From Conus ventricosus (lineage: Eukaryota > Mollusca > Gastropoda > Neogastropoda > Conidae), in contig CM031596.1 in the NCBI GenBank assembly GCA_018398815.1, positions 73,753,157-73,817,156 of the forward strand: 64,000 nt of DNA. Reading direction: 5' to 3'. Below are positions 25,739 to 64,000 of the stretch, one piece after another (the stretch's first letter is position 1; every line of letters begins with the position of its first letter). The notes below the pieces were generated by a model that was given only the letters and a program-made list of their open reading frames with translations, was not told where the DNA came from and ran no database searches. Both the position numbers and the translations under genes were made by a program.

Positions 25739-26054
25739 GTAAGAAACATTTTTCTTTATAAAAAGAACCTTTTTTATGATTTTGTTCATATATTGTTTAC
25801 ATGGGTGAAACTTTTCCGTCTATGGACGGAAATCCGTCAAAATGATTTTCAGTCTGGACGGAACTTCCGTCAATTAAAAAAAAAAAAAAAAAAAAAAACC
25901 AACCGATTTATCGGTTCCGATTTTGTGTTCGATCCAAGTTTTCCATCTCATACTGGAAGTAGCTGTTTCTGTGTTTCCGGCATCTTCACAGGCTGACATT
26001 GGCGCGTCTGACTGACAACGAAAGTTTGCACGGTGCTCCAGAAATTAAGTAGTC

Positions 26055-26300
26055 ATGGCTTTTTTGAAAGAAGGAGATCCAGTAGCATGCATCGAGGGCA
26101 AGATTAGAAACAAATGGAGATGGCAATGGCAAAACGAAACTGATGACGACGGCAATGAATATCGCAAGTGGTGCAAGAAAATAAATGTGGCCGGCATGTG
26201 TTTCTGTATCGTTTGTTCAAAAACGATCAGTTACGGAGCGAACGGAAAAAAAGAAACTTCGAAGCCATGCTGATCACCCAGAGCATAAGAAAAACGGATA
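26055..26300 (+). pseudogene. BED-like zinc-finger N-terminal exon of the hAT-like element
   Basis: ATG 26055 opens MAFLKEGDPVACIEGKIRNK, then a segment ending NEYRKWCKKINVAG and the finger start FCIVCSKTISYGANGKK. After a one-base shift near 26260 the other frame continues LRSHADHPEHKK, completing C-x2-C-x(about 14)-H-x4-H. The reading is cut at 26300 by a nested MITE. Similar single-exon frames occur in the related elements at 31016, 43165 and 62706. Function is inferred as the DNA-binding head of a transposase. Confidence 0.7.
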
Positions 26301-26569
26301 AATCCTATTTTAGCGGCGCAAAACATTATTTAGGGTTAGGGTTAGGGGGTGATCGGAAAGAAAGTCAACGGGAAAGAAAGTCAACGGGAAAAAAGTCACG
26401 GAGGGACCCAGTCTACTCCAAAGCAGAATCGATGGTCTTTAGATTAGAGTAGGGCGAAGCCCGAGAGAGGACGAAGGACGAATGAACGAAGGCCGTTAGG
26501 CCAAGTCGTGCTCACACATTTCTGAGTCGCGCATCGGGGCTCAAATGTTTGCGCCGCTAAAATAGGATT
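26301..26569. mobile_element. 269-bp MITE with TA target duplication, carries (TTAGGG)n
   Basis: The termini are perfect 22-bp inverted repeats (start AATCCTATTTTAGCGGCG; the complement ends at 26569). TA dinucleotides flank both sides (26299-26300, 26570-26571), as for Tc1/mariner-type elements. Inside, 26329-26347 reads TTAGGGTTAGGGTTAGGG, identical to the animal telomere repeat, and GAAAGAAAGTCAACGG units follow in tandem. It is inserted in the zinc-finger ORF of the surrounding hAT-like element. Confidence 0.9.
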
Positions 26570-28754
26570 TAACCAGAAAAACACGAAGGCGAGTTAACAT
26601 TTTTGTATTCTTTGCTAAAGTAATTAGAATCAAATAAAAAAAGTTGATTGGGGGGGGGGAGGGGGGGATTGGATCTGGATCTGGATCTGGAACAATACGT
26701 TCGCAGAAGCCGATCAACGGCTATAAACGCGACGGAATGGGGAGAGCGCAAAAATAGTTTAAAAAGGGGGGGCTAATTATACTTATAGTTCATATTTTTG
26801 GTGGGGTGGAAGTAATTTAATGTATATCGGGGGGGGAGGGGGGGGGGGGGGGGGGGGAATTTTCCAATTTTTTATTGTTTGGATTTTTTAAAGAGTAAAT
26901 TTCCTTTTTTTTTTTTTTATATTACTTTCAGGTGGTGATGGGATTCTTAGACTTTTATTATTGTGAGTGGGGGTTTTGTTGTTGTCAGTTTTCATTTTGT
27001 TTGTTTATTTATTTTTTTTAGTTCCTTTCCTTTAAAAAAATCATGTTTATTTATTTTTTTTTTTTTTAGTTCCTTTCCTTTAAAAAAATCATGTTTGTTA
27101 TCATACTTTTTTGGGAAAAGAAAAGGTGGGAAAAACAGAAATGACCTGAATCCTCCCTACACTTTACCAATTCCCACCTCGGAATATTTATCACAAGCAG
27201 CCAAAAAAATGTAGCTACTGTCTCCTCCACGTCTAGCCTATTTCCAGCTGCAGCCCCACCTGTCAACATTTCTACATCTGTATGTCCATCTGTGCCCTGT
27301 CATGTTCAGTCTGCTTCTTCAGCTGCTCCATTGTCTCCAGTACCTGGCTCCAGTAGAAAACGAAAAGCTGGTGCTGCAGACATCGGGCAGTTTTTCAAGT
27401 GCCCACTACTGGACTGAAAGACTTTTTTTTTCTTCATCTTTCCTTTTTACCACTCATTGTTTGACAGGGCAAGAGAATTTCATTAATATATGACTGCTTA
27501 ATTAAAATCAACAGGAATCATAATGACTCGTCCTTGCTTTTGTTTGACACCATGGAAAATGATAGAAATGTGGATGACAGCTTTGCACTTTATTGATGGA
27601 CAATTCTGAAAATGATTGAAAGGATGAATTATACTTCATGTATATGGTGGCTTTTTGACAGTGAGGACAAGAGGAACTGACAAGATAAGAAGGCCACCTT
27701 TGTTCATCCATTTTCTATATGTGGTGTGGTTGCTAGGAAAGACAAAATGTGCTGACAACATGTCAACTTTGATTTCTCCTTATTTAAAATGGTGTGATTC
27801 TTTGGACTTAAAAGACAAATGGTGCCGGCAAGAATAAGGCTACTTTGGTTCCTCATTGTGCATCTCAAATGTGTGAGCATGTATGTTCTTTTTACACACA
27901 GTCTTGATTCAAATAGTAAAGTGACCATTTTAAACAATTTGTGGGGGAAATTTTGTTGATTTTTGGAATGTTTTGATCAGTTCAGATTGGGTGAGAAAAA
28001 TTTCCCTTTTTGAGTTTTTATATTCTGGTTTATTTCTACACTTAAGACTAACTTTCCTGAGTTTGTACAATAAGCCATGAATATTATTTTTATTCATTTA
28101 AATGAATTAATGGAACATAAAGTCTTAACGGTAACTCACAAAAGCATGTTACAGTTAAGCTTTTTACTGCAAAAATCATGTTACAATTAAGCTTTTTCTG
28201 GTGCAGGAGAGCCAACGAAATTGGCCTAAAAAATTAAAAAAATCAATTTCGCCCAGGGGGGACCCCCCAACGGGGCGCTGCCCCTGTACCCCGCCGGGGC
28301 CTAGGCGGCCCCTGGACCCCGGCCTAATTTCAGTCAAATCAAGTTTTGTAGGTTTCACCCATGTGTTTATTTGGTGTGCATTCTTGAGTAAATTGATCAT
28401 AGGTTAATAATATATTGAAATATAAAAAAAATTCTTTTCATTTGAAACCAGTGGAAAGCCTAGAATTTGCCGTTTGGTTGAAATGAAGTGCTGAAAAAGG
28501 AAACGTGAGTACGATCATGCATGGGATGTTTTGTTGTACTTTCATCTGATACTGACAGATGACAAATTAAATGTATTTTATGAAAATTACCTTTATGTTG
28601 CTTTGTGTGTGTATGTATGCATGCATGTGTGTACATGTGTGTGTAAGAGAGAGAGAGAGAAAGACAGGGGTTGGGTCAGGGAGGGGGGCATGGAAGAAGA
28701 AGACAGACTTGCTAATAGCTTGACTAAATGTTATGCAGAGTTATGCAATATTGT

Positions 28755-28846
28755 ACTGGTGAGTTGATTTTAACGTGGTGACAGCCCTGATATGGCCCTT
28801 TGCGGTCGGCTGGGCTATAAGCAACATTATCTTATCTTATCTTATC
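28755..28846 (+). mobile_element. 92-bp 3'-end insertion of the I-type LINE
   Basis: Begins CTGGTGAGTTGATTTTAACG and ends with (TTATC)n, the 3' terminus of the LINE at 16403-18690 (about 95% identical by eye). The 12-bp direct repeat ATGCAATATTGT flanks it (28743-28754 and 28847-28858), a clear target-site duplication. Confidence 0.93.
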
Positions 28847-29085
28847 ATGCAATATTGTTCGGGGCTTCTGATTTACATGCAGATGTGTGAGTTTCATGTT
28901 TTACGGCTCGACGTACCTCTCGAATTATTTGGACTACTGGACCTTCACCCTTTATTATAAGTTGCTTGCACTTCTGTTCACTTTTAATCATTATCAAAGC
29001 ATGAATGAACGACTGTGTTTTTGTGTAAGCAGACATTGGAAGTTTGAAAGTCTCTTGGGTTTCTTTTCATCATCATCATCGCCTA

Positions 29086-29970
29086 TTACCCTTCCTGGGG
29101 TACAGGCCGCCAACCAAGGACCTCCAGGCATCTCTGTCCTGGGTTCTTTTCTCTAGCTGGTTCCAAGTCATCCCCATGTTCCTGATGTCTGCTTCCAGGT
29201 CCCTGCACCAGGTGTTCCTTGGCCGACCTCTTTTTCATTTTCCTTGGCGGTTCCATGTTAGGGCTTGTCTGGTGGTGTTGCTTGCAGGTTTCCACAGCGT
29301 ATGTCCAATCCAGCCCCAACGTCGTTTCTGGATTTCCTGTTCTGCGGGCAGCTGGTTTGTTCTCTCCCAGAATTCGTTGTTGTTGACGGTGTCTGGCCAT
29401 CGGATGCGGAGAATTTGCACAGGCAGTTGTTGATGAACACCTGCACTTTCTTGGTGGTGGCAACTTAGTTCTTCCGGTTTCCGCTCCGTACAATAGAACT
29501 GCTTTGATGTTGGTGTTGAAAAGCCTGACTTTGGTGTTGACTGTTCCGTAGCTGTACGAACGCTGCCCTGGCCTTTCCGATCCTTGCTCTGACGTCGGCG
29601 TCTGTGCCCTCCTGCTTGTTGATGGCACTGCCCATGTAGGTAATGCTTCTACTTCCTCTAGCGTCTGGCTGTCCAGCATGATCGAGTTGGTGCTGACAGT
29701 GTTGGCCTTGAGAATCTTGCTCTTGCCTTTATGGATGTTGAGCCCTACTTGTGCTGATGTGGCTGCTATGTTGCTTGTCTTCTCTTGCATCTGATGTTGA
29801 GTGTGCGAAAGTAGTGCCAGGTCGTCGGGGAAGTCCAAATCGTCAAGCTGCGTCCAGGGTGTCCACTGGATCCCATGTCTTCTCTGAGCTGTGGAGGTCT
29901 TGATCCAGTCAATTGCCAGTAAAAATAGAAATGGTGAAAGCAGGCAACCATTTCTGACACCAGTCCTCAC
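29086..29970 (-). pseudogene. RT palm to C-terminus of the RTE LINE
   Basis: A 294-codon frame starts MRTGVRNGCLLSPFLFLLAI (RT block 4) and contains DLDFPDDLALLSHTQHQMQE (block 5, Pro replacing the usual Ala before Asp-Asp) and GLNIHKGKSKILK. A frameshift then scrambles it; the correct C-terminal reading ([29 protein letters not shown]) is in other frames at 29235-29446. The WPDT...LWERTNQLP...RRW.WIGH pattern is typical of RTE elements in molluscs and flatworms. Confidence 0.88.
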
Positions 29971-30540
29971 TTCGAATGCCTTTGTTAGCTGCCCTCCATG
30001 GATGACTCTTCAGGTCAGAGCCTCGTATGAGTTTCTGATGATGGTGGTGATTTTGGCTGGCACACCGTAATGTCGGAGAAGCTTCCACAGGTTGTCTCTG
30101 TCTACACTGTTGAAGGCTTTCTCGTAGTCGATAAAGTTGACATACAGGGATGAGTTTCACTTGTTCGATTGCTCAACAGTGATGCGAAGCATGCTATCTG
30201 GTCTGTGCAGGATCGATCCTTGCGAAAGCCAGCCTGCTGGTCGCGGAGTTGAGCATCAATGGGATCCTTTAACCTGTTCAAAATGAATCTGTTGAAAACC
30301 TTTCCTGGCACTGACAGCAGTGTGATTCCTCTGTAGTTCACGCAGTTGCTAAGGTCACCTTTCTTGGGAATCTTGATAAGGTATCCACCTTCCAGTCTGC
30401 TGACACTTGCTCTCTTCCCAGATCTTCTTGAAGGAGGCCAAGCATCTCTACTGTGTCTCTATGTCTGTCTTCAGCGCCTCTGCGGGATGTTGTCAGATCC
30501 TGCCACCTTTCCGTTCTTCAGTTGTCTGATGGCCCTCCAA

Positions 30541-30543
<3 letters not shown>

Positions 30544-30571
<28 letters not shown>

Positions 30572-30661
30572 CCCACGTCGGAGGCAGTGCACCTACGCCG
30601 CTCATTCCGACACCCTGTCCACAGCCACAGCCTGGTCGGCCCCGCCGCAGCCCCGGCACTC
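30544..30661 (-). mobile_element. Short poly(A)-tailed retroposon in the RTE LINE (copy 1)
   Basis: A run of 23-26 T followed by about 95 bases (containing CGGAGGCAGTGCACCTACGC and CCACAGCCACAGCCTGGTC) interrupts the RTE coding sequence and is flanked by CCAATTT (30537-30543 and 30662-30668). In antisense it is a short RNA copy with a poly(A) tail. A diverged relative lies at 36681-36800. The source RNA was not recognised. Confidence 0.7.
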
Positions 30662-31015
30662 CCAATTTCTTCTTTGGTTGGTGCCCCGCAGTCTATTGAC
30701 AGTACTGAGTCGGCCTCTTCGATGTCTGGAGGGTTCTCTGGCGGTGGTCTGTTCAAGAGCTCCTCGAAGTGCTCAACCCATCTGTTCTTCTGCTGCTCTT
30801 CTCGTGCCTTCCCTCTGCCTTTTATTGGTCGTTCTGGCCTCCTGTACTTTCCTGCCAGCTCCTGTGGTGTCGTACAGTCCTTTCATGTTTCCCTGTTTTG
30901 CTGCTTGTTCGGCTTCTGTTGCTAGGTCATCTACACATTTCCTCTTGTCTGTTCTGATGCTCTTCTTTGCTTGTTTGTTTGCTTCAGTGAGTTCTGCTTG
31001 TGCTTTGGCCTTCTC

Positions 31016-31809
31016 CAGACCTGTTTACCCCTACGGATTCACCGTAGTTTCTACGAAAATAGGTCCTCAGCTACGGTGCTACGATTACACAGGCTCAAAC
31101 TACGGAGAAAAACAAACAAAATCAGCCACTAAAGCTGTCAGCGACGATCATAAACGAAAGTATGTGAAGGGAGATAATTCTGATATTTTCCAATTTGCTT
31201 GCGCATGCGTGCTAGTTTCTTTCGTCTGCTCCAGTCTGCTCAGTCGATTCGCGCGAAAATGTCAACAAAAAGGGAAAAAGAAAAGGCCAGTGAATCAACT
31301 GACCCTTGCACATCTCCACCAAAGAAAAAAGCCCGGCCGCCTCCTGCACAGCGTTTTGGAAAGGAGTATACACAGGAGTGGTCTTGTTTACAGGCATCGA
31401 AAAAGGGAGAAGCGTATGTGCGGTGCACTGTTTGTGACACGGACTTCAGCAGTGCGCATGGCGGAAAGAATGACTGTTTCAGACATGTTAAAAGTGCCAG
31501 AAACGAACAATTCAAGAGAGCCAAGGGAAAACAATCCACTCTGCAAGGCTTCTTTACACAGCAGCGTGATGAGCTAGAGGTGACACGGTCAGAGGCTCTG
31601 ATATGCGAATTCTTGGTGGAACATAATTTGCCATTCGCAGCAGATCTCACAAAGGCAATCAAACGCATATGCCCAGACTCAAAAATTGCCAAGTGATCAA
31701 ATGCTGCAGAAGTAGTGGTGACTACTGACAGTTGCTCAAATTTGAGCCCAAACTACTGACACAGGTCATCATGACTACTGAAAGGTCATGTTGGGGGTAA
31801 ACAGGTCTG
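31016..31809 (+). mobile_element. hAT-like 794-bp deletion derivative
   Basis: Perfect 16-bp terminal repeats (CAGACCTGTTTACCCC, and its complement ending 31809) and the 6-bp direct repeat CTTCTC (31010-31015, 31810-31815) delimit an insertion that splits the RTE LINE. Subterminal CTACGG/CCGTAG motifs recur in both orientations at 31031-31110. It carries only one N-terminal zinc-finger ORF; no transposase core is present between the ORF stop and the right end. Confidence 0.92.
31259..31696 (+). CDS. BED-like zinc-finger protein from the hAT-like derivative
   Basis: A 145-codon intact frame from ATG 31259: a basic start (MSTKREKEKASESTDPC), PPKKKARPPP (possible nuclear localisation signal), FGKEYTQEWSCLQASKKGEA, then RCTVCDTDFSSAHGGKNDCF and RHVKSARNEQF, a C-x2-C-x16-H finger whose last His appears lost. 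It then reads KQSTLQGFFTQ, which fits the PCNA-interaction (PIP) consensus Q-x-x-[ILM]-x-x-F-F, and a hydrophobic segment (ALICEFLVEHNLPF) found at the start of larger hAT/DUF4371-like proteins. It ends PDSKIAK-stop. It looks like the first exon of a transposase retained alone; if expressed it would be a DNA-binding fragment without catalysis. Function is inferred. Confidence 0.6.
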   Translation: MSTKREKEKASESTDPCTSPPKKKARPPPAQRFGKEYTQEWSCLQASKKGEAYVRCTVCDTDFSSAHGGKNDCFRHVKSARNEQFKRAKGKQSTLQGFFTQQRDELEVTRSEALICEFLVEHNLPFAADLTKAIKRICPDSKIAK

Positions 31810-33140
31810 CTTCTCTGCTCTTGTTCGGCTGATGTTGATTGCCGCTTTCTTCTCTTTCCTCTGTTGGGTCTTGCATAGGCTGTCTGCGGAGATCCATTCT
31901 TTGTGTTGGTGCTTATTGTGGCCAAGCACTTCTGGCAAGTTGATGTTACTGCCTCCTTGATCTCCTTCCACTTGTCCTCTAGTGTACTGTCTTCCTCTTC
32001 CAGTAGTTCTTGCAGTACTTAAAACTTGTTGCCTAGAGTTGTTCTATATTCTTGGATCTTGTTAGTACCTCTCAGGAGAGCTGTGTTGTACTTGTGTCAT
32101 ATTGCATGTGCTGTCATCAAATTCTTCTTTAACTTCAGCTTAAGCCTGGTCACAACGAGGTGGTGGTCTGAAGCCACGTCTGCTCCTCTCTTTGCCCTCA
32201 CATCCTGCATGGATCTTCTGAATTTCTTATTGATGCAGATGTGGTCAGTCTGGTTTTCTGTTGTATGGTCCGGTGAAACCCAGGTGGCCTTGTGGATGTT
32301 CTTGTGGGGGGAAAAACGCTGCCACCGATGACTAAGTAGTTGAGTGCACATAGGTCTGCCAGTCGTTTACTGTTCTCGTTCATGTCCCCCAGTCCATGGC
32401 TTCCCATGATGGTCTCGTACCCAGGGTTGCCCTCTCCAATCTTGGCGTTAAAGTCCCCCATCAGGATTGTGATCTCGCTCTCTGGGTACATTTCTATGAT
32501 GGACTGCAGTCTGTTGTAGAACTGGTCCTTGTCAGTTTCCTCACTGTCATTTGTAGGAGCATAGCACTGTATAACATTCATGTTGATCTTCTTCTTGGTT
32601 CTGAAGGATGCCGTGATGAATCTTGGGCCATGAGCTTCCCACCCAATAAGCGCTCTCTGAGCTGTTGTAGACAACATCAGTGTGACTCCTTGAGTATGGG
32701 GGGCATTGTCCTCTTCATGTCCTGAGCACAGCAGCATCTCTCCTGAGGTCAGTCGTTTCTTTCTGGACTATGTCCAGCAGGTTTCACCGACTCCAAGCAG
32801 GGTTAGGTTGTAGTTCATCTTTGATGCTACTTGGATTGTCTTTCCTGTCTCGTACATGGTCCTGATGTTCCATGTTCCGTTGTTGGCTGCCTTGGTTGAA
32901 AGAAAGGCGGTCGACTGTGTGGCTTCCTGAGATTCGAGGCTTTCACCATATCTTCTTGACGAAGACCGATCCCTTCCAGGGCTGAGGTGTCGATTTGATC
33001 TTTGGCTGGCGTTCTTGTAGCTGTGGTTTGTTTTACGGGGGGGGTAGCTGGCCCCACGCCCAACCCCCCTCACTTTATCCGGGCTTGGGATTGGCATGAT
33101 TCCCAAAAAGGGTCTCCTGGCAGAGTTTTGGGTTTCTTTT

Positions 33141-33726
33141 GCCCCAAGATTTCACTTGTCATGATGCAAGCAGGTGACATGCAACAGATCTGCTGCCAGT
33201 GTTTCACGAAGCCAAAGAACATTTATACTTGTATATTTGATGGACCCATTGAAGTATTGTTGGACTGCTCACAATCAATAAGACCACTTCAATAAATAGT
33301 GTTTCGTGCCTTTTCAAAATATGCGACTTGATTTGGTCTTTGACTTGGACTCTTTACCACAAGTTGAAGGAAAACAAGCATAGGGATCAGATTCTTCTGC
33401 AGAAAAAAAAAGTAAATCTGAGATACAGCATTTTCACTCTGTGTAGATTTCTGAAAATCTTTGCCTCTACTTTGACAGCTAGAGCCAGGCTGTGATCAGG
33501 GTATTAGAATGAGGTGCCGATTGTGCTCTGACATCAGTTTGAATTCTGTGTCAGCAAGTAAGATGAGGAATCTTTTTGCCTACAAAGGGTTCTGAAACTT
33601 CAGAAAATCAGTCATATCTCATCATAAGTAAACTGGTAAATCACAATGCTATCAAAACATTACCTTTTCTCTTCTTAACTTACTACTGGCAGCAAACTTA
33701 TTGAGTCAGTCAGAATGCTGTATTCA
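33141..33726. other. MASK intron 3 spacer, nothing recognised
   Basis: About 590 bp of ordinary AT-rich intron between the RTE LINE and a piggyBac-like MITE. No coding or structural feature was found. Confidence 0.6.
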
Positions 33727-33730
33727 TTAA

Positions 33731-34313: not shown

Positions 34314-34691
34314 TTAAAACAGTCCTTTTTGTAACAGCTGGTTCCAAACATTCTCTTTCCTCAGCAAGAGAGAGAGAGAGAGAGAATATGTATGTGTGTG
34401 TGTGAGAGAGAGAGGAGACAGAGAGAGAGAGAGAGAGAGAAAGCTGGATGTGTACTTGAAAAATCTTCCTTGTATTGAATGGTCAACCTGGAATTAAAAT
34501 GAATGGAAAGAAAAGCTTTAATATCTGTGGAAGGGTGAGCTCACCTCACACACCAACATTGAATTGGGACCCTTGTTGTTGCTTGTTGTGTAGACATATA
34601 GGCACATTTGCTGACGTATGCTGTTTTTTTGCTTGATTTCAACTGTCGCTTAATAATTATTTTTTTATGTTAGCGTATTTTGCTTTGGCAG

Positions 34692-34827: not shown

Positions 34828-34955
34828 GTATTGTCTGACTATTCAGTGTTGTGAATAATTTTTAACAACATGCACCAGGTGATGAAACTGGAGAAAATTT
34901 TTTGTGTGTTTTCGTTGGTGTAGAATTAAGTGTGAAAAAAATCAATCTCACTTAA

Positions 34956-38285: not shown

Positions 38286-38935
38286 GTATAAGTTTGATGC
38301 CTGTTTAGCCCATAACAGGTAGACTAGTGCTGTTACATTCAGACCATGTGATTTGCATCCTTATCTCTCCCAACAAAATGGATTGTTTTCTCTCATTACT
38401 GTTTGCAGGTTGGTTTGTCTGTCAGCAGGCTTATGCAAAAATACAATGCAAGCAGTGCAGGACACTGTATGTTTGACAAACTGGGTTTTAGAAATCAGTG
38501 TTTCAACCCAAACAGAACATCAAAGCTTTTGGATTTCAGCTGGATTCTGTATCTTTGAGTTCCATTTTTGAAAGGAAAGCTGAAAGAGTTACTGAAGCTT
38601 GTACATTGTGATGCAGAAAGACGAAATGACCATCAGATTCGTTTGCAAGATGGTTGATTGCGGCACAGCTGGGGGTGTTACTGCTTCCATTTTTAGAAAG
38701 GTCTTGAAATCATGAAAAGTCAAGCTCATGTTGAACACGAGGAAACTTTGAAGGCTTTATCTGTCTGTCTCACAGTATATTTACAGAGGCCTTTGCATAG
38801 AGGATTCAGAATGTTTCCTAATAATTTGGAATGAACCATCTGTGATTGTACATTCAGATACCTCAGGGTCTGATTGGAAAAGAGTAAGAAATGATGTGTG
38901 GAGAAGTATGGATAATTCAGGGACAGAGAGAACTT
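38286..38935. other. MASK intron 6 start, nothing recognised
   Basis: About 650 bp without a supported feature. Confidence 0.55.
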
Positions 38936-39472
38936 GTTAATTGCCTTGGAGTCGAAGCAGCTGTCTTCAGTCTCATATCCCTGTGCAGGTAAACCCAGAG
39001 TTCTCACATGAAAGTGCACTCTGACGGTAACACATCTGTTGCATGCAATAATAAGGTGGGCAGCACAAAGCCAGAGGGTAGCAGTATTACCAGAGAAGTT
39101 TTGCTATGCTGCAAAACAAGCACTCGCGCACATGCGCATACGCACACACACACGTGCACACACACACACACGCACACAGAACAACAAAAGTGGAACTTAG
39201 ACTTATTTAGAAAAGATAACAATAATGGCTTTGTGATAATTGTAGTGACTTTGTGCTGCACACTTTATTAGTGCATGCGACACAACTAGACTTATTTAGG
39301 AAAGATATCTGTAGTGGTTTTGTGATCATTGTAGAGGCTTTGTGCTGTCCACTTTATGAATGCATGCAACAGATGTGTTTCTGTCAGGGTGCACTTTCAT
39401 GTGAGAATTCTGGGTTTCACTGCTCAGGGATGTAAGGGTGAAGACATCTGCGTTGAGTCCAAGGCAATTAAC
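38936..39472. repeat. Long inverted repeat, about 540 bp, probable foldback MITE
   Basis: The outer arms are reverse complements: GTTAATTGCCTTGGAGTCGA on the left answers GAGTCCAAGGCAATTAAC on the right, and GTTCTCACATGAAAGTGCAC answers GTGCACTTTCATGTGAGAA. The arms reach inward to about 39080 and 39335 (GCAGCACAAAGCC / GGCTTTGTGCTG). The middle holds a (CA)n tract and an internal duplication (TTAGACTTATTTAG... at 39196 and 39287). Part of the right arm is repeated once more outside (39440-39524 against 39525-39600). Confidence 0.85.
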
Positions 39473-39600
39473 AACTTTGTTTTTAATCTTGTTTAACTTG
39501 TTCTGAAAATAATGATCGGTGAGTGAAGACGTGCTTTGAGTCCAAGACAATTAACGACTTTGTTTTTAATCTTGTTTAACCTGTACTGAAAGTAATCATC

Positions 39601-43164: not shown

Positions 43165-44383
43165 CAGACCTGCCTACCCTTCCGTAATCGTCCGTAATCT
43201 TACGGAAATTAACCCCCCATTACGGAGGTACGATTTTCCGTGCGAAATTACGGAAAAGAAAATTGAAAAACTACGCAAATTCCAGACTCGAAAAATTGTC
43301 GACTGCTAGACCTTTCCGAGACCACAGAGTAACTTCCCTTGACTCAAGCCGAAACCACAGATGGTTCGGAACTTGCGATTGGTCAATGTGGTGCTGTGGG
43401 CCAACACGACGCGCCATCACATCTGTGCGCGCCATTCGAAGCCTTTTGTTCAGCCATTGTAAGACAAAGTTTCAACCGATGTTTTGCCGGCGATTGTGAA
43501 AATGGCGGAGGAAATCTTCTAAACGTTTGCATGAAACCGACGACGAGGGTTCGAAAACCACTGTGCCACAACGGAAGAAGGCGAAGAAGCAAGTGTTCCG
43601 AAGTAAATACACACGGACTTGGCCTTGTCTTTTGCAATCCAAAAAACATGGACCTGGATTTGTATATTGCTCGGTGTGCAATTCAGACTTCTCCATCGGA
43701 CATGGGGGAGCAAATGACTGCAAGCGCCATATCTCGGGGAAAATGCACAAAGAGACAGCTGTCAGTGCTCCAGTCAGAAGATCACATCGTTGTTCACGAA
43801 ATCCAGCGAGAGCAGCCGTCGGACCCACACACGGAAGATCACCAACGCAGAAAGACTGTTGTGTGAGCTGATCTGCGGAAACAACTTGTCCCTGAGCTGT
43901 GCTGACAAGATAGTGGCGAAAATGAAAAGGATGTTTCCAGACTCAGCAATCTCTCAGGCACAATACAAGGCTTAGTGCAACACACACACACACACACACA
44001 CACACACATTTTTGTTTTTTTTTTGGGGGGGGAGGGGGGGGTTGTACATTAGGTTCTTCATCAGTGGTGTCATCTGTGGTGACTGCTGTGTAAGTTACAA
44101 ACTGTCAAGTATATCACCTTTGAATTGACCTGAAACTCCTGTCCTGAGTCTGTCATCAGCCATCATCCCAAGGTATTTTAATTCTGCTTTGTTGTTTTTG
44201 TTCCTTTTTTACTGTTTATATATTTTTGTTAAAATGTTAAAAATGTAGTTGGAGTTTTGTACACATTATTTGTTCAAAAACGCCATGTATTACGCGTCCG
44301 TGGAATTACTGAAGGAAAATGCAAAATTACTGAAAATCTCTGTGGTTATTACTGATGAGCATAACATGAGGTAGGCAGGTCTG
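43165..44383 (+). mobile_element. hAT-like 1.2-kb deletion derivative
   Basis: The terminal repeats CAGACCTGCCTACCC and its complement (ending 44383) are flanked by CTTAAA (43159-43164, 44384-44389). Subterminal TTACGGA/TCCGTAAT motifs recur in both orientations at 43182-43256. The interior carries one N-terminal zinc-finger ORF and then a (CA)n tract, polyG and AT-rich filler. No catalytic transposase sequence follows. The TIR is a close relative of the one at 31016-31809. Confidence 0.9.
43502..43975 (+). pseudogene. BED-like zinc-finger N-terminal exon, frameshifted
   Basis: Possible start ATG 43502 (MAEEIF), then after a shift HETDDEGSKTTVPQRKKAK, FRSKYTRTWPCLLQSKKHG and the finger YCSVCNSDFSIGHGGANDC, KRHISGKMHKE (C-x2-C...H-x5-H, complete). 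After a second shift near 43770 the frame reads SQKITSLFTKSSESS (weak PIP-like), AERLLCELICGNNLSLSCAD and MKRMFPDSAISQAQYKA-stop. The order of blocks is the same as in the intact ORF at 31259-31696. It is the DNA-binding head of a hAT-like transposase without the rest. Confidence 0.75.
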
Positions 44384-50742: not shown

Positions 50743-50751
50743 GTAAGTAGA

Positions 50752-51811
50752 CAGAGGTGATTCTAGAGCGCGAATTAGCGGAATACCGCTTAAAAAAATC
50801 GAAAGACGCAAAACCGTAAGCCCAGCGCGGCCGCTGCTCCGCACACAAACAAGAAATGCCGCGCTCGCCAGTCGTGACTGCGCTAATTTTTTTCACTCCC
50901 TTGCCTTTTTAATCTCGCGTCCGCTTGGCCTAGTAATCTACCGAGCGAACCAAGCGAAGCTGTCATCGAGCTATCAGCTATGTCAAGGTCAGCCTTGTGC
51001 GCATGAGCAGTAGGAACTGAATGTAAACGCATGTCTGTATAGTCAACTGCGATTAGTTGGAAAGTTTGCTTTCAGCCAATCACAGCTCGCGGTACGGCAG
51101 CCCTGCGTTTCTGCCTGAGGTTCCATCATGGCGAAACGAGGCACGTTGTTGGATTTTTCTTTTACCCGAGGGGCGAAGAAATCGAAGAGAGGAGGAGAGG
51201 CAGATGATTCTTTGGATGTACAAAGCGAGTGTTCGACCGTCACTGAGCAGCCGCCTAGTTATCCTTCAACGAGTGCCAGTGCCGACAGTGGAGATGTAGA
51301 TACGCGATCGCAATCAGACTGTCAGTCCGACCGGGTTAGTTCTGTTTCGTCATGCGAGCGGGAATCGGAGCCTGTGTCAAGTTTCTGTGATCATGATGGT
51401 GGTTCGGGATTTTCGTCATCAAAACCAGACAGTGTTGTGTCTGCAAGCGACATGCCTGAGACTGAGTCAGGGACCGCTTCAGAGACGCTTGTGGACAGTA
51501 GTACAGCGAAGCCAGACACAGAGGAGACAAACACTGCAGTCACAAAGAAAAAATTTAATAGAGAACTTTGTTGCCTTCAACTGGATCTGGGATTTTCTGT
51601 GTGGTGCTTTGCTGGATGGAGTGGATTACTTCAAGTAAATCCTCTGAATGATTACTAATACTATGAGTTAACAATTTATAACACTAGTAGTACCTGCCGT
51701 TGAAAAATATAGAAATTATATAGTTAAAATTTAGGCCCCCCTGGGGGGCCCCCTTTTTTACACTGAGGGGGCCCTTGGGCCCCCTTTTTTGGAATCCTAG
51801 AATCACCTCTG
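50752..51811 (+). mobile_element. hAT-like 1.06-kb derivative abutting the exon 10 donor
   Basis: Perfect 15-bp terminal repeats CAGAGGTGATTCTAG and CTAGAATCACCTCTG are flanked by AGTAGA (50746-50751, 51812-51817). Near the right end there is a GGGGGCCC/CCCCCTTTTT block, shared in style with the element at 59943-60535. It carries an N-terminal ORF only (51128-51658). No transposase core is present. Confidence 0.93.
51128..51658 (+). CDS. ZMYM/TTF-like N-terminal ORF of the hAT-like derivative
   Basis: A 176-codon open frame: MAKRGTLLDFSFTRGAKKS is a start typical of ZMYM/TTF-type hAT proteins (basic residues then TLLDF). Then comes a long Ser/Asp/Glu-rich low-complexity region (about residues 30-140) and KKKFNRE near residue 140, where such proteins begin the TTF zinc-finger domain. 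The remaining residues read out of frame (another frame gives FNWIWDFLCGALLDG), and the ORF stops before any finger. A related start, MKRAPTLFDFDF, occurs in the element at 59943-60535. Function is not established; it looks like the isolated first exon of a transposase. Confidence 0.5.
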   Translation: MAKRGTLLDFSFTRGAKKSKRGGEADDSLDVQSECSTVTEQPPSYPSTSASADSGDVDTRSQSDCQSDRVSSVSSCERESEPVSSFCDHDGGSGFSSSKPDSVVSASDMPETESGTASETLVDSSTAKPDTEETNTAVTKKKFNRELCCLQLDLGFSVWCFAGWSGLLQVNPLNDY

Positions 51812-54358: not shown

Positions 54359-54411
54359 CATGTAGATATGTTTTGAAATTCACACTCACTTTTTCTCTCT
54401 TGTAAACACAG

Positions 54412-55950: not shown

Positions 55951-56757
55951 GCGGACAAGTTTGTGATTTTGATGGTGTCACATATAGCCTTCAAGTAGGT
56001 GGGTCAATTTCAGGACACTCAAAATAATTTTTTTGGCTGCTGTGTAACCTGATTCCACCACTGTGCTTTCTGAAGGCAGGCATAAGGATAGGAAGGTCCA
56101 AAGAATCTAACCTCTTTGTGCTGCTATAGAATGGGAATGGTTTGATTAGAACCATTACTTTGTTCCTCTATAATGCCAAAAATGATATCATTACTTTGTT
56201 CCTCTGTGATGCCAAAAACACTAGAATTTAACCTACTTCAATCAGTCGAACACAATAATGTCACCTTCTGTGAAGGTTTTAGATACATTTTCCTAGGTCT
56301 GCATTATCACATTTGAATCGGAGTTTCATTACAACTTTGACGGACGACAGATGAGCTAGATTTTCAATTCAAGCTTGTCAGCTTTATTGATGTTGATCTC
56401 CTAACTTTCTTTAACAGTTTGAATGTATTACTGTATGGAAGTCATGATTAAACACAAATTTTCAGATAAATCTATTTTTATGAAAATCATGCCGATACTG
56501 GTGTAGTCAGTGGTCATTGAAACTTTGGCATCCAGCTTTTTGCAATAATCAGTCTGATCTTTCCGCCCGTGTTTGTATTTGAGAGGAAGAAAGGTGAAAA
56601 CTGACTTGAGGTGAGTCACATGTTGAGTTGTGAAAGTCATTGTACCCATTTTGAGTTGGTAGGAGGAGAGCGGAGGCTGCCAGAGACAGTTGAGATGGGT
56701 GGAAAAGTTGAAGGACCGCCACTGTATAACTTAACTGCACCTGTTTGTAGAGTTGTT

Positions 56758-56806
<49 letters not shown>

Positions 56807-57105
56807 CCCATCTTTTTCATTTCTTTCACCATTTTGAAGTTAGCATTTCAATGTTGTTCATGGAGATATTTGTTTCTTTTTATAGGTCTAGATTAATATC
56901 ACAAGGAATTTTAGTTCTATCTTTTGTTTTGAGATATTGGTTTCTTTTCATAGGTCTGGATTGATATGACAAGGAATTTTAGTTCTGTCTTTTGTTTTTT
57001 ATGTTGTGATTGATTCCTTCCCACATTGGGCATTTGTTGAAGAGGCTTTAGGAGAGGCAGGTTAACTCTTGAATCTTTGAAAAGCAAGATTGTCTTGTGT
57101 TGCAG
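55951..57105. other. MASK intron 11 end, with (CT)n tract
   Basis: About 1.15 kb. It contains a (CT)n microsatellite (56763-56807) and a diverged direct repeat of about 65 bp (TTTATAGGTCTAGATTAATA at 56878, TTCATAGGTCTGGATTGATA at 56947). Nothing coding was seen. Confidence 0.6.
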
Positions 57106-57232
57106 GAGCCAATGTAAACCGCAGTACGTCGACTAATGACCACACTGTACTGTCGTTGGCTTGTGCTGAGGCCATCATCAAGTGGTGGAGGAGCTCTTGA
57201 ACAATGGAGCAGATCCTAACCATAAGCTGAAG
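57106..57232 (+). CDS. ANKHD1: MASK coding exon 12, with one single-base deletion
   Basis: Acceptor GTTGCAG, donor GTGTTT. It reads GANVNRSTSTNDHTVLSLAC, then a base is missing at about 57168 (GCTGAGGC where GCTGGAGGC is expected), and the other frame gives GHHQVVEELLNNGADPNHK, LK, phase 0. The restored exon is 128 nt and its phases fit. It corresponds to the last repeats of the first MASK ankyrin block (NDHTVVSLACAGGH in vertebrates). The following exon (DGSTMLIEAAKGGH in ANKHD1) was not found before the window end. Confidence 0.92.
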
Positions 57233-58638
57233 GTGTTTGCTTTATCACTGCTTGCATCTTTTCTTTACGCTCTATTCCAGATGTGCCTTTTCTGCCATGT
57301 ACGACTTCTTTAGTTTCGAAGATTTTTGTTTGTTTTTAATGTTTTACAAACATGGTTTATGTACATACATACCAAAACTACACACTGTAACATTTCATAG
57401 AAATATCAGTAAAAAGTGACAAAATCAAAATGGAACAGAAACAGTGTTGTGACTATTGGCTAAATAACTGAAGTGCTATCTCTGTTGTGACTATTGGCAA
57501 AACAATATTTTACTTGTAATTAGTGCTATCTCAGAAGTAGATATCACTCACCCTGTAGTAGTTTGCACATAGTCATGAAGAAAAATTTTTTTCATCGTCG
57601 TCATCATGAAAAATAATGGTGCTGATGTTGGAAGAGTGAATCAAAGTAATCCAAAGAAGTGTGAGAAGTCACTAATTACAGTCACCAAAGCTCTTGAGGT
57701 AGGGAAGACATAGGTTCAAAATACAGGATTGGTTTCATCCAGATGGGAGAGGGGGAACAAGACGGTTGTCTCATATTTGAAAAAAAAAAAAAAAAAAAGG
57801 ATTTTGTGAAGTGGTTAGTGAGCCCAGATGAAACTATTCTTATATTGCTGTAACAGCACAAAACTTTGTTGAGAGTTTTATGTTGTACATTAGTAGTCTT
57901 AAACATCTGGACAGTTATGCACTGTGTGGGTGTTTTGTATGGTCGATTATGAATATCAGTGCAGTTGTATGATTTTTTTCCTATTATGACCACGCCCAAT
58001 TAAGACCTGATTTTAGCTGTGTTTGTGCTCATGGTAAGAGGTTTGACTATCATTTCACATGCTGAGAAATTCATGTGTCGCCTAGGAAAAAAAAACACAA
58101 CCCAAAATATACTCTGCACCGAACTGTTTTCACAAAAGGCATGAAATCGTGCACGGGAGAAGCCAAGAAGCCAGGGCTTTCTGCATTTCAGGTTGACCAG
58201 ATTTAGTGTTTTCCACTTGGCATTTAAATAGTCTCATGGAATCTAGGGGCAGTTCTCACGAGTCATCTGAATACAGTCAAATTTCACTGGAGGACAGTGG
58301 AACAAGAAAATGCTTTCATGCCAGAATGACAGCTACATGGTTGCATAAGAACATTATTCTCTCTCTCTCTCTCCTCTCTCTTCTCTCTTCTCTCTCTCTC
58401 TCTTCTCTCTCGTTTCATGATGATTATAACCAGTGCTTGTATAGCGCAACATCTCCAACAGTAAATGGACCTCTTGATTAATGTTGGAAAAATGAATATC
58501 TTGAAGAACAAAATTTCCCAACCAATTCACAAAATAAAGAGTTTAAAAATCTTATTCATGGCATATTAAATGAATACTTTGACAAACATTCAGTATCGGT
58601 AAACACACCTCTCTCCGATAGGAATTGTAATGCAAATA
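57233..58638. other. MASK intron 12, first part, nothing coding
   Basis: About 1.4 kb of AT-rich intron with an 18-base A run (57781-57798) and a (CT)n tract (58361-58410). Confidence 0.55.
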
Positions 58639-58649
58639 CATCATCATCA

Positions 58650-59654
58650 TCAGTCCTCTCCGTGCCTGCTGGCGCTTGAGGCTATGGCAAGAGATCTCCA
58701 TCTGGCTCTGTCTGCGGCTGCTCTGGGGGCTGTGTTGAGAGTCAGTCCTTTGCCTTTCAGCTCTCTTTCTATTGTCCTGCGCCAGGTTTCCTTCGGTCGC
58801 CCCCGTTTTCTTTTACCTTGGGGGGTCCAGCGCAGGGCTGTTCTGGGGAGTGAGCTGGGTGGCATGCGACAGACATGCCCTAGCCATCTCCATCGACGCG
58901 CCTGGATGGTGTCCTGTATTGTGGAGACTCCTGTTCTAGTCCTCAGTTCTTCGTTTGAGATGATGTTCGGCCAGAAGATCCTGAGGATACGTCGCAGACA
59001 TTTGTTCTGGAACACTTCCAGCTTTTTCTCAATGGCGACGGTCGTCTTCCAGCACTCTGAGCCATACAGGAGGACGCTGAGGACATTGCTCTTGAAGAGT
59101 CGAATCTTCGTTTGGATGCTGAGGACGGTGGATCTCCAGATGGGCCTAAGCACTGCGAAAGCTTGGTTGGCTTTGCTGATTCTGGGGTTGATCTCCTGGT
59201 TGCAGTCGTCGTCTGTGGTCATCTTGCTGCCCAGGTATACAAATTCCTGAACATCATCAAGTGGTTTGCCGTTAGCGGTGATGGGGTTGTTGTTTGTGGC
59301 ATTTTTCCTCATGACCTGCGTCTTCCTCTCGTTGACCTTCAGCCCAATGGTGCTGGCTATCTCGCTGAGGCTTTCTGTCTTCTGCTGGGCGTCTTGATGC
59401 TTGTGTGACAGCAGTCCCAGGTCATCTGCGTAGTCAATGTCCTCCAAGACTGAGGTCAACGTCCACCGGATTCCCCGTTGCTTTCCCTGGGTGACGTTTC
59501 GCATCAACCAGTCGATGGCCAAGGAGAAGAGGATTGGTGACAGTATGCAGCCTTGTTTCACTCTGGTGTCCACCTTGAATGGTTCCGTCAGCTGGTTGTT
59601 GTGGATGATGTGACACTCAAAGCTCTCATACAGGGACTGGATGATGTTGACCAT
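58650..59654 (-). pseudogene. RT C-terminal two-thirds of the RTE LINE
   Basis: A 334-codon open frame includes VKQGCILSPILFSLAIDW, DIDYADDLGLLSHKHQDAQQ (catalytic Asp-Asp), GLKVNERKTQVM, VQEFVYLGSKMTTDD, the thumb (SVLLYGSECWKTT) and the RTE C-terminus (RRWRWLGHVCRMP, GKRKRGRPKETWRR). Upstream RT blocks (QEQAGFRAGRSCIDHIFVLR) are in another frame because of one missing base. The preserved length suggests a recent insertion. Confidence 0.9.
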
Positions 59655-59942
59655 TTTCTGGGGAATGCCGTATGTCGTAGGATCTTCCAGAGAGAAGCGC
59701 GGTGCAAACTGTCAAAGGCTTTCTCGAAATCAATGAAAACCACGTAAAGTGTGCTGTTCCATTCATGGGACTGCTCGAGGATCTGGCGTAAGACGAAAAT
59801 GTGATCAATGCATGATCTCCCCGCTCTAAAGCCTGCCTGCTCTTGACGAAGTAGGTCATCTACCGCTTTCTTTATACGCTGGAGTAAGATGCGACTGAAG
59901 ACTTTGCTGGTGATTGATAGTAGGGTGATGCCTCTCCAATTG

Positions 59943-60535
59943 CAGAGCTTAATCTAGAGCGCGGGATTGGTACAATCCCCCGAACATCTGTTCCTTCCCG
60001 CAATTATGGAGTCTGAACGCGGGCAGACTCCCGCACAGTTGCAGGACTGCCCGCCCTGTTCACAGATTGTTGCGGGCGCTCGTTTGTCGTCTGCTTGAAA
60101 AACTGAAACTAGGACTGAGCAGGAGCGAACGATTTCTTGATATTTCATTGGCTGTTAGTGTAAATCAACCAATCGGCGGCGTTCATCTCCTCCATCTCGA
60201 TCACCGACGAGAAGTTGCGAGAGTTTAAAGGCGCCATATTGGATATTTTCCAAAATGAAGCGTGCACCCACTCTATTCGACTTCGACTTTCGTTGAGGAA
60301 AAGTGAAAAAAAAAAAAAAATTCTCTGCCATGCGAGGGTGGAGAAGATCATGAAGAAACCGCGACTACATCCAAAAGCTCGGAGAAGCAGCCCGAAAATA
60401 GTGCAAGGGAACACCGGTTTCAAAACGATTGGCTGAAGAAGTGGCCCGGGGAGAGGGGGAGTGCCCCCCTTTTTTTTATGGGGGGGGGGGGGGGGGGACT
60501 GCCCCCCTTTTTCAAAAATCCTAGATTAAGCTCTG
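59943..60535 (+). mobile_element. hAT-like 593-bp derivative in the RTE LINE
   Basis: Perfect 15-bp terminal repeats CAGAGCTTAATCTAG and CTAGATTAAGCTCTG are flanked by AATTG (59938-59942, 60536-60540). The pre-insertion site is known from the interrupted RT reading (NNWRGITLLS). Inside, ATG 60255 opens MKRAPTLFDFDFR, then a frameshift/stop, and later FQNDWLKKWPGER, the start of a ZMYM/TTF-type hAT protein. A polyG/CCCCCC block precedes the right end, as in 50752-51811. No catalytic region is present. Confidence 0.93.
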
Positions 60536-61344
60536 AATTGTTGCATTCTCCTAGATCTCCTTTCTTTGGTAATTTGATGATGGTACCAGTTCTCCAGTCA
60601 GCTGGGGTTGTCTCCTGGTTCCATATGTCCTGCAGGATGCGTTGGAGGATAAGAGGTGTGTCCTGTTCTTCTGCCTTCAGCATCTCGGGGCATACACCAT
60701 CTTCTCCTGGAGCTTTGCCATTCTTCAGCTTGCGGATGGCTTCCTTGACCTCATCTACTGTGATGTCTCCCATGTTGACGTCCAGGTCCTCCTCTGCCAT
60801 AGGAATGTCAGCTGGTGTTGGTGGATCAGGGCGGTTTAGGATCCTCTGGAAGTGCTCTCTCCACCTCTCGAGCTTGGCACATTCTTCTGTGATAGGTGTT
60901 CCGTCCTCTGCCTTAACTGGTATGTCTTGGTTCTGTCCTCTGTCTCCCCGCAGCCTCTTGGTGGTTCTATACACTGTCTTCATATCCTTCATCTCTGCTG
61001 CTGCCTCGGCTTCTTCAGCAAGCCTCTCCGCATAGAGACGTTTATCTTTCCTTGCAGACAACTTCACTTCTTTGTCTTTCTCTCTGTGCTGGGTTGCTAT
61101 TCTTTCCTTTAGCCTGGGTGACTTGGCATCTAGCAGTTTCTTCTTGATCTGTTTTCTTTCCTCAATGGTTTTCCATGTGTTGGCAGTTATCCACTCAGAT
61201 TTCACACTTTTCCTATAACCTATTGTCTCTTTTGCTGTTTCGGTTATAGCCTTGTTGAAACTGTCCATGGTCAGTGCTGTTTCATCTTGGAGGACGCTGA
61301 AGCGATTCTTCAAGGTGACGCAGAATTCTTTCTTTTTGTTATTT

Positions 61345-61751
61345 CTTTCTTTCTTTCTGCGTACGCAGACTGATACTCCTGCGGACACTCCCTGTATAGC
61401 CAGGCAGTGGAGTTTTGTGTGTATGACTGTTTTTTTTTAATCCCGCCATTAAGGCAGCCATACTCCATCTTCGGGGAAGGTGCATGCTATGTGTCACGTG
61501 TCATCCATACCAACGGCCAAACTGGCCTTCTCTTCCGAAAGTTGGTGATGGGATTTTACGTGTGTGCAAGATGTTATGCGTGCGTTCACACACGGAACCT
61601 CGGTTTATAGTCTCATTCGAAGGACTATATGGGGAATGGAGTCAGAACCAATGTTAACTCCGAGGGAAAAATCCCCCTATACCGAAATTCGAACCCGCAA
61701 CCCCAGGATCACGAGTCCGGCGCTCTACCAACTGAGCTATCCGGCCCCCCC
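61345..61751 (-). mobile_element. tRNA-derived SINE inserted in the RTE LINE
   Basis: On the minus strand the head has box A (TAGCTCAGTTGGTAGAGCG) and box B (GGTTCGAATTT), followed by the common body and the 3' palindrome CTGCGTACGCAG plus an (AAAG)n tail. Imperfect flanking repeats (TTTTTGTTATTTCTTT and TTTGTTGTTATATCTTT) are consistent with a target duplication. The LINE reading resumes on each side. Confidence 0.92.
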
Positions 61752-61768
61752 TTTGTTGTTATATCTTT

Positions 61769-62705
61769 TAGCTTGGCAACATCAAAGCGCAGGTTCGACT
61801 GTCCCCAACTTTTGCCTTCCTCAGTTTGAGGGTCAGTTTCACTACCAGTAGTTCATGGTCACTACCAACATCTGCGTGTCGCATCACACGTACATCTTGT
61901 AGGGAGCGCCTCCATTTTCCGTTGATAATGATGTGGTCAATTTGGTTCTTTGTCTTTCCGTCGGGGGATGTCCATGTTAGCTTGTGGATGGTTTTGTGAG
62001 CGAAAAGAGTACCGCCGATGACCAAATCATTTTCTTCACAGAGGTCGATGAGTCGTTCGCCGTTGTCGGTCATGTCTCCTATTCCATGTTTCCACATGAC
62101 TCTTTCCCTGTTCTCATTGTTGCTACCAACTCTTGCGTTGAAGTCCCCTATCAGGAGGAGAACATCGTGTCTTGGTATGTCATCCAATGTTGCTTGGAGC
62201 GCACTGTAGAACTGATCCTTGTCCTCTTCGTCAGTGTTGTCTATTGGTGCATAGGCCACTATAACTGATAGCTTGGCACACTTGGAGTTCATTCTTACAT
62301 ACAGCAGGCGTTCATTGATTGGTTTCCATTTCAGTACGGCATTGGCATGTTTCTTGGCAATAATGAGGGCAACTCCTTCCTGATGGATGTCATCTTGCCT
62401 TCCTGACCAGATGATGGTTTCTCCAGTACTCAGTCTCTGTTTTCCTGTTTTTGTCCATCTTGCCTCTGTGACCCCTACTAGGTTCAGGTTGTAGTTCTTC
62501 ATCTCATTTACAGTTTGTGCTAATCTTCCAGCTTGGTACAAGGTCAGCACGTTCCAAAATCCAACTTGCATGTGACGTTTTGGCGTTAGGAGATCCGCTA
62601 TCGGGCTGGAGACGTCCTTTCGGCTTTGGTCCCCCTCCTTTATAAGTCCAATTGCTTGGTCTGCTTCATTCCCTCTGCCAGATGGAGTAGTTTCTCTTGC
62701 TGTCG
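61769..62705 (-). pseudogene. Endonuclease domain of the RTE LINE
   Basis: About 310 codons uninterrupted: MQVGFWNVLTLYQAGRLAQT (N-terminal strand), GVTEARWTKTGKQRL (catalytic Glu), VIVAYAPIDNTDEEDKDQFY, LLLIGDFNARVG (Asp/Asn), GTLFAHKTIHKLTW, KNQIDHIIING and DVGSDHELLVVKL (Asp-His). All endonuclease catalytic blocks are present. The ATG-proximal residues (MHRSA) lie in the adjacent hAT-like terminus and are not native. Confidence 0.9.
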
Positions 62706-64000
62706 CAGACCTGTGCACTTTACGATTTTTGCGTATAATCTCACGAAATTTAATACAGCTATACGATTGTACGTTTCAAAACCAAATTGTACGAAATTTT
62801 GATGAACGAGCTTACGAAAATGCGCTGAACACGTAATCCGGCCGAGTCCAAGAGTCTGGTCCAACTTTTAAAAGTTCCGATGGCGCATGCGTACTTCCTG
62901 CCACTATGAATGCATCAACATTGCTTCTCACTCAGCTTCAACTCGCGCGCATGAAACAGACAACGAAAATTCAGATTCATTGGTAGAAGCTGTGATCCAA
63001 AAGAAAAAGAAATATGAACAGAAGTACAAACCAGCGTATCATACTATTTTCAAGTTCATTACTGCGTCAAAGAAGGGCGATACGTTCGCACACAGCACCA
63101 CGTGTTACTGTCAAATCGCGATTGCTACAGTGGTCGCTTTGACATTCAGCGGCACATCGGTAGCAAAAGCCACAAGGGAAACAGTGATTCTGGAAAACGG
63201 TAGGCAATGAACATTCAAAGCTTTTTCGTGAAGTCGAGTTCTGCAGGCACTTCTGATGAGAGACTGGAACATCAGACTACTCGCGGAGAGGGACAAAAAG
63301 CTCCAAAATCCCCCCCTCCCACCCCACCCCCGCCCCAAAGGAGCACACTGTCCAGTGAAATTCTTGAAAGTCTTCTCATCCTGAAGAAGGCTGACTGTTC
63401 TTTAAATTAATAGATGCAGTTCATAAGAAGGAGGCTTGAAAACGGAACCGATACATCTTCCACAACCCAAACCGTACTTTTGCAAGTTGCAGAGTTGACA
63501 GATGCCGACACGATCGTCTGAAACGCGGTAGGCAGGCCTATAACGCTAGGCCTATCAGTGGGCTTTCTGTTTAGTTAAGCTTAGCTAGCAGACGACGCAA
63601 AGCTGCAATCCAGCATTTTTGACGTCACGGGTTCCACAGTGCAGACGCGGTGCTAATGTTCGCGGCATATAGCTGACTTAACATTTTCGCTCATGCTATC
63701 TATGTTAAAATGTTCCCTTTATAGAAATTCATTTGAAGATTGGGGCAATAATGATGAAAATATTATTACCCAAATAAATATAGGTACATAACATGACGGA
63801 TTGCGAACATGCGAACATAACAAACAGCTTGGGGAACAGCTGTATGCTGAGTTCTTGAGTAACATTTACAGGATAGATTCCTTTTCCCGCCTTGTCTACC
63901 CCCCCCCCTTCCTCCATGTTGGCAAAGTAAGGTCCTTTTTTGGCCTCATGCCCATCACCTGGGAACCCTGAAGGAGCTGGAATCACCAAAGTCTGAAATA
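62706..64000 (+). mobile_element. hAT-like element, left end and 5' part, runs off the window
   Basis: It starts CAGACCTGTGCACTTTACG, sharing CAGACCTG with the termini at 31016 and 43165, and splits the RTE LINE. Subterminal TACGA/TCGTA-type motifs recur at 62717-62820. A zinc-finger N-terminal exon lies at 62887-63410. No matching right end is seen; sequence to the window edge, including an AGGTAGGCAGGCC-like stretch near 63530, is not assigned. It may be longer than its relatives. Confidence 0.75.
62940..63410 (+). pseudogene. BED-like zinc-finger N-terminal exon, frameshifted
   Basis: The frame reads RAHETDNENSDSLVEAVIQ, KKKKYEQKYKPAYHTIFKF, ITASKKGDTFAH, then after a shift near 63095 NRDCYSGRFDIQRHIGSKSH, KGN. 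The H-x4-H pair is clear; the Cys pair is damaged at the shift. After a stop it continues AMNIQSFFVKSSS, which matches the hydrophobic-x-x-F-F core of the PIP-like motif at the same place as in 31259-31696. The block order is identical to the two related elements. Confidence 0.7.

What the first reader, a model, noticed from the sequence alone, without database searches (positions are those of the whole stretch)
25800..63410. A set of hAT-like elements that each keep only the 5' zinc-finger exon
Six elements (25800-28363, 31016-31809, 43165-44383, 50752-51811, 59943-60535, 62706 onward) have CAG/CAT-starting inverted termini. Five have both ends and 5-6-bp target duplications visible. In every case what survives is the promoter-side end plus one N-terminal exon (BED-like finger, or ZMYM-like start), never the catalytic core. 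Random internal deletion would be expected to break the ORF anywhere. Repeated retention of the DNA-binding head suggests either a common abortive gap-repair breakpoint or selection for a titrating or repressing fragment, as known for P-element KP-type repressors. Presence of the elements is seen; the repressor idea is inference.
Basis: partly seen in the sequence, partly recalled or inferred. Interest (0 to 1): 0.75.

Follow-up and report, generated by a model that had tools for sequence, protein, structure and literature searches.

The report
Shrunken hAT transposons keeping front ends
These are ordinary shortened copies of "jumping genes" that have lost the cutting enzyme; the bit of DNA-binding protein that they still spell out is decaying freely in the one family where this could be measured, so it does not look like an evolved repressor, although several families seem to have been cut at nearly the same spot.

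Summary
Five of the six elements are real: terminal repeats and 5-6-bp target duplications at the stated coordinates; the sixth has no 3' end in the window. They are internally deleted, non-autonomous elements of hAT5/hAT6 type. E2, E3 and E4 are single members of young amplified families in this 3.5-Gb genome. For the E2/E3 kind there is no "N-terminal exon": relatives in the same genome encode the transposase in one open ~700-codon frame, and a decayed longer relative shows E2 to be a plain 2-kb deletion with 2-bp microhomology inside that frame. E4 and E5 are cut at the start of their finger. "Never the core" holds in the window only: sister derivatives keep part of the catalytic domain or the C-terminal domain. 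The E4 family alone shows five mapped 5' breakpoints over ~115 codons. What stays odd: in four BED-headed families the cut lies within a few codons, just before the catalytic domain, leaving 157-158-aa frames. This is post hoc, and only two of the four have a sequenced parent. Verdict: ordinary deletion derivatives; one unexplained regularity.

The parts
25800..28363 (+). E1: TIR CATGGGTGAAAC, TSD TGTTTA; head with a WC..C..C pattern (by eye) from ATG 26055, apparently frameshifted at an A-run near 26246; family not assigned
   Evidence: no Pfam hit
26296..26574 (.). 279-bp inverted-repeat element (27-bp arms, flanks AGAAAAAC twice) nested in E1 just after the head
31016..31809 (+). E2: 794-bp deletion derivative, TIR CAGACCTGTTTACCCC, TSD CTTCTC; member of an amplified family
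31259..31696 (+). E2 head frame, 145 aa (family consensus 158 aa): C2H2 BED-like finger plus helical region, homologous to P0001 up to residue 165
43165..44383 (+). E3: 1219-bp derivative, TIR CAGACCTGCCTACC, TSD CTTAAA; member of an amplified family
43502..43976 (+). E3 head; frameshifted in this copy, open (157 aa) in the consensus of 9 copies
50752..51811 (+). E4: 1060-bp derivative, TIR CAGAGGTGATTCTAG, TSD AGTAGA; member of an amplified family with several different deletions
51128..51658 (+). E4 frame: N-terminus without finger, cut at KKKF, where the sister L095 goes on into a TTF/ZMYM-like finger (label recalled)
59943..60535 (+). E5: 593 bp, TIR CAGAGCTTAATCTAG, TSD AATTG, inserted in a LINE reverse-transcriptase frame; early stop in its frame; relative of E4 by eye (ends and RFQNDWLKKW), no blastn match to E4
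62706..63410 (+). E6: 5' end CAGACCTGTGCAC and frameshifted head of the E2/E3 kind; 3' end not found

Best explanation
E1-E5 are non-autonomous elements of hAT type (5-6-bp target duplications) made by internal deletion of longer elements and then copied in trans by the transposase of full-length relatives. A deletion starts somewhere in the reading frame and ends near the 3' tip, so the left end, with the leader and the first 130-270 codons, is kept as a passenger. Shown: ends and TSDs; amplified copies for E2, E3, E4; one-frame full-length relatives for the E2/E3 kind; parent and simple deletion junction for E2, E2b and one derivative of the L057 family. Inferred: that E1 and E5 arose in the same way; trans-mobilisation; abortive gap repair as the source of the deletions; that the left end is kept long because hAT left ends carry more cis-sites. 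After amplification the head frame of E2 drifts without detectable constraint.
For: TIR/TSD scan with null. E2 head aligns to a 705-aa protein with a hAT dimerisation domain, whose residues 615-666 match Hermes. E2: 40 of 40 scored places (232 candidates; the window copy included) are colinear with the whole element; of the 39 others 33 have identical 6-bp flanks, 3 differ at one base, 3 differ more. Full-length frames in the same genome, with TIRs and identical 6-bp flanks in L056, L057, L058. L073: E2 = deletion 845 to 2864 sharing GC; E2b = deletion 1222 to 2873. E3: 38 of 40 scored places (896 candidates) colinear end to end; 8 of 8 fetched copies have identical 6-bp flanks. E4: 24 of 40 scored places (470 candidates) colinear over 1060 bp, the other 16 partial; the 5 of these fetched are sister deletions. 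Neutral head in E2.
Against: Random deletion does not predict that four BED-headed families are cut within a few codons (simulated chance 1e-4 to 3e-4 for hand-entered positions, but post hoc; 0.05-0.09 with only the three events that have a sequenced parent). The head frame is open in the E2 and E3 consensus and in the F3, F4 and L055b copies read. L073 lacks the first 6 bases of the E2 left end and no TSD was found for it. E1, E5 and E6 were not traced in the genome (E1 search unanswered; E5 and E6 not searched).
Confidence: 0.85

Rival explanations
1. KP-type repressors: the shortened elements spread or survived because the head (finger plus the helical region that in Hermes would be the N-terminal dimerisation domain, recalled) binds element ends and poisons the transposase.
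For: Four families leave 157-158-aa frames ending just before the first catalytic strand. The isolated Hermes BED domain binds its left end (PMC10368747, passages); the 207-aa KP protein of P elements is called a repressor (PMC7776569, passages).
Against: Omega 1.0 in E2; shared changes are not enriched in synonymous ones (125 N to 36 S, against 2.9 to 1 expected); two nonsense changes and three frameshifts are each shared by two copies, though L030 and L047 have the same flanks and may be a local duplication. E4 and E5 keep no complete finger. E2b keeps part of the catalytic domain; F3 keeps C-terminal sequence.
Confidence: 0.07
2. A DNA-level hot spot or recurrent template switch makes deletions start at the same place in different families.
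For: 5' cuts at P0001 ~165-171 in E2, L055b, F3, E3 although the distance to the 5' tip differs (about 700, 970, 780 and at most 812 bp).
Against: The two parent-mapped junctions share only 1-2 bp and I saw no common motif by eye; E2b in the same family is cut ~115 codons later; E4 family cuts are scattered.
Confidence: 0.1
3. Real exon boundary: the head is a first exon and the breakpoints lie in intron 1.
Against: Full-length copies read through without a stop; L016, L074 and L073 carry coding sequence on across the E2 junction; L095 reads on in frame past the E4 junction. Not tested for E1, E5, and for E3 only through related families.
Confidence: 0.03

Closest known systems
hAT5/hAT6 groups of hAT transposons
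   Same: 5-6-bp TSDs, CA-starting short TIRs; for the E2/E3 kind a head plus hAT dimerisation domain in the full-length relative
   Different: Placed by TSD length and transposase similarity, not by a tree; TSD of E5 is 5, of the others 6
Non-autonomous hAT deletion derivatives (Ds-like, MITE precursors; recalled)
   Same: Internal deletion, both ends kept, many copies
   Different: Left remnant longer than the right one in each derivative whose two sides were mapped here; head frame still open in several founders
P-element KP repressor
   Same: Internally deleted element that still encodes the DNA-binding head
   Different: Other superfamily; no evidence of expression, binding or repression; head neutral in E2

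Membership tests
hAT superfamily, hAT5/hAT6 type | 5-6-bp target site duplication with short CA-starting TIRs | tested here: met
   hAT5/hAT6 definition from PMC12730594 passages
hAT superfamily, hAT5/hAT6 type | related full-length element encodes a hAT transposase (dimerisation domain) | tested here: met
   E2/E3/E6 only: P0001 has PF05699 E 5.2e-12; L073 covers P0001 38-668 between E2 ends. Not tested for E1, E4, E5
hAT superfamily, hAT5/hAT6 type | position in a hAT tree with hAT5/hAT6 | not tested
   no tree was built
BED zinc finger | BED profile or fold | tested here: inconclusive
KP-type repressor | truncated protein keeps DNA-binding head | tested here: inconclusive
   yes in the E2 and E3 consensus and in F3, F4, L055b copies; no complete finger in E4 and E5
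KP-type repressor | protein is made, binds element ends and lowers transposition | not testable with these tools
   no expression or assay data

The most novel reading that the evidence does not exclude
Independent hAT families in one genome have repeatedly founded amplified derivatives cut at the same protein boundary, leaving a ~157-aa DNA-binding plus dimerisation module. This would be a convergent, KP-like self-limiting step in hAT invasions, selected at founding and then left to decay.
Probability: 0.1. Interest if true: 0.7.

Novelty: new member of a known kind. Interest (0 to 1): 0.3.

Why it matters
It puts a speculative repressor story to a test: the head in the best-sampled family is neutral, and the 'exon' is a passenger of the long left end. 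The residual clustering of deletion points in four families is a precise, testable regularity about how hAT families die.

Tried and rejected
Rejected: exon boundary at the E2 junction. Rejected: selection inferred from open frames alone; a first sample of 19 copies (18 chosen by protein score, plus the window) gave 40 N, 19 S, 1 X singletons against 48.5, 16.9, 3.1 expected, about 0.73 by my arithmetic; the excess of synonymous changes vanished when copies were chosen by DNA score. Before that count I left out four loci held only through the protein search (L016, L020, L021, L028). Rejected: 18628-19234 as a sixth hAT element; by eye a pair of inverted retroelement-like tails. Withdrawn: my note that five copies lack the head; L058 has it, frameshifted; the other four were not checked. 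Rejected: the 1802-codon frame at C21, which is a run of N. No relatives among plasmids. Parents of E3 and F3 were not found among six further heads (L088-L093; three of these repeat families already held). The E2 head as query for short proteins gave 4 hits of 18 candidates, one of which (98 aa, 85% identical) ends at KDIKC, near the E2 cut; not followed up. ZBED2 and ZBED3 rank low in the fold comparison. The search with 400 residues of L057 and the E1 search did not complete; E5 and E6 were not searched in the genome.

Full report
What is there. TSDs are 6 bp in E1-E4 and 5 bp in E5, the lengths that define the hAT6 and hAT5 groups (PMC12730594, passages read). E6 has a 5' end and a head but no 3' end within the window. 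E5 lies in a LINE: joining its flanks gives an open reverse-transcriptase frame. E2 also lies between LINE-like frames, but these are offset by one base when joined. E6 borders an endonuclease-like LINE frame.

Which family. E2's head matches a 705-aa protein, P0001, the only hit of 108 candidates in the padded search, up to residue 165. P0001 has a hAT dimerisation domain and similarity to Hermes at residues 615-666. E3 and E6 carry the same kind of head. A longer sister of E4, L095, runs on into KKKFQDKWLKKWSWL (the label TTF/ZMYM-like is recalled), and E5 shows RFQNDWLKKW at its cut. E1 remains unassigned.

One frame, not a first exon. The window lies in a 3.52-Gb assembly of 12,740 contigs (about 35 chromosome-sized contigs make me guess a cone snail, from memory). 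A search with P0001 listed 74 matches (63 of 6736 candidates scored); 16 of them cover 600 or more residues in one stretch without a stop, in open frames of 703-761 codons. L056, L057 and L058 have TIRs and identical 6-bp flanks (2785, 3171, 2576 bp); L058's frame is shifted. L073 is a decayed longer relative of E2: its left part is 93% and its right 104 bp 98% identical to the E2 consensus, with P0001 residues 38-668 between; the first 6 bases of the left end are missing and no TSD was found. E2 lacks L073 845-2864; both sides share GC. So the E2 'exon end' is a deletion point inside the frame.

Each traced element is one of many. E2: 40 places scored of 232 candidates, the window copy included, all colinear with the whole element; the others 94-97% identical. 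I fetched the 39 others: 33 have identical 6-bp flanks, 3 differ at one base, 3 differ more; two (L030, L047) have the same flanks 1.8 kb apart and may be one insertion duplicated. E3: 40 scored of 896, 38 colinear end to end, two partial; 8 of 8 fetched have identical flanks. E4: 40 scored of 470, 24 colinear over 1060 bp, 16 partial. Repetition within a family is one deletion copied, not repeated retention.

Other deletions. In the E2 family a second derivative, E2b (L016, L074, L075, L076, L079; identical 6-bp flanks in L074, L075, L079), is cut ~115 codons later and keeps ATDGSND and GCDNANVM, which I take from memory for the first two catalytic Asp motifs; it ends 95 rather than 104 bp from the 3' tip, so it is independent of E2. 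F3 (8 loci; identical 6-bp flanks in 5) keeps the head and, out of frame, the C-terminal dimerisation region. F4 (7 loci; identical flanks in 4) is cut at ~180-188. The E4 family has 5' cuts at about 774, 805, 872, 895 and 1117 bp with 3' remnants of 76-256 bp (5 of the 16 partial places fetched; the junction of L094 was not mapped and L095 was fetched without its 3' tip). So 'never the core' and 'only the 5' part' fail genome-wide. Where both sides are mapped (E2, E2b, L055b, E4 and three E4 sisters) the left remnant is the longer one. Hermes has BED contacts at its left end and none at its right, and Tol2 needs 200 and 150 bp (PMC10368747, passages); this may be why, but I did not test it.

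Selection. In the 40 E2 copies, singletons are 95 N, 32 S, 4 X against 92.4, 32.0, 6.6 expected from the element's own mutation spectrum: omega 1.03. On distinct mutations omega is 0.99 with a non-coding spectrum and 1.02 with all (null 0.73-1.44). The seven Cys/His codons of the finger region carry 1-3 nonsynonymous changes each against a mean of 0.81 elsewhere. 21 of 40 copies keep a frame of 140 aa or more. Two nonsense changes and three frameshifts are shared by two copies each. Against this, the protein-chosen sample gave about 0.73, which I put down to the way it was chosen. E3 is too young to tell (4 N, 3 S, omega 0.59, null 0.22-3.11; 8 of 9 open). F3 and F4 were not tested.

What stays odd. 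The frames of the E2 and E3 consensus and of the F3a and L055b copies are 158, 157, 157 and 158 aa, and blastp similarity to full-length relatives ends at codon 147-156 in all four, depending on the relative, just before C.RTKTT and the first catalytic strand. E2 and L055b have different sequenced parents (L073, L057; L055b lacks L057 1205-2935), so at least these two events are independent; E3 and F3 have no parent here. A simulation gives 1e-4 to 3e-4 for four of six within five codons, from positions that I entered by hand and a window chosen after seeing the data; with the three parent-mapped events it is 0.05-0.09. The E4 family's five cuts, which are scattered, were not in that simulation. 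I leave this as a lead for a KP-like founding advantage or a hot spot.

Verdict. Real elements of an ordinary kind; the exon claim fails where it could be tested and selection is not seen in E2; one regularity is worth a census.

Noticed in passing
window 26296-26574: A 279-bp element with 27-bp inverted arms and 8-bp flanks AGAAAAAC sits inside E1 directly after its head.
   Followed up: partly
window 50743-50751: E4 is inserted 9 bases past what looks like the splice donor of an ankyrin-repeat exon: exon end, then GTAAGTAGA, then the element; the gene model is by eye.
   Followed up: partly
window 38931-39477: Fold-back element with 142-bp arms, 86% complementary; a 5-bp flank repeat AACTT at 38936-39472.
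   Followed up: no
window 18628-19234: 607-bp inverted pair of retroelement-like tails (GATAAGATAAG) with a 5-bp flank repeat.
   Followed up: no
L055 (reverse strand) 579-3173: An element with a 715-codon frame is nested in a head-only derivative of the L057 family.
   Followed up: yes
L062, L070: F3c derivatives join head codon ~171 (P0001 count) almost directly to the C-terminal dimerisation region, out of frame.
   Followed up: partly
E2 and E3 left ends (window 31016-31110, 43165-43260): Several TACGG/TACGA repeats within the first ~90 bp of the left end, and CAGTAG (E2) repeats near the right end, as expected of subterminal repeats; CAGTAAT in E3 by eye.
   Followed up: no
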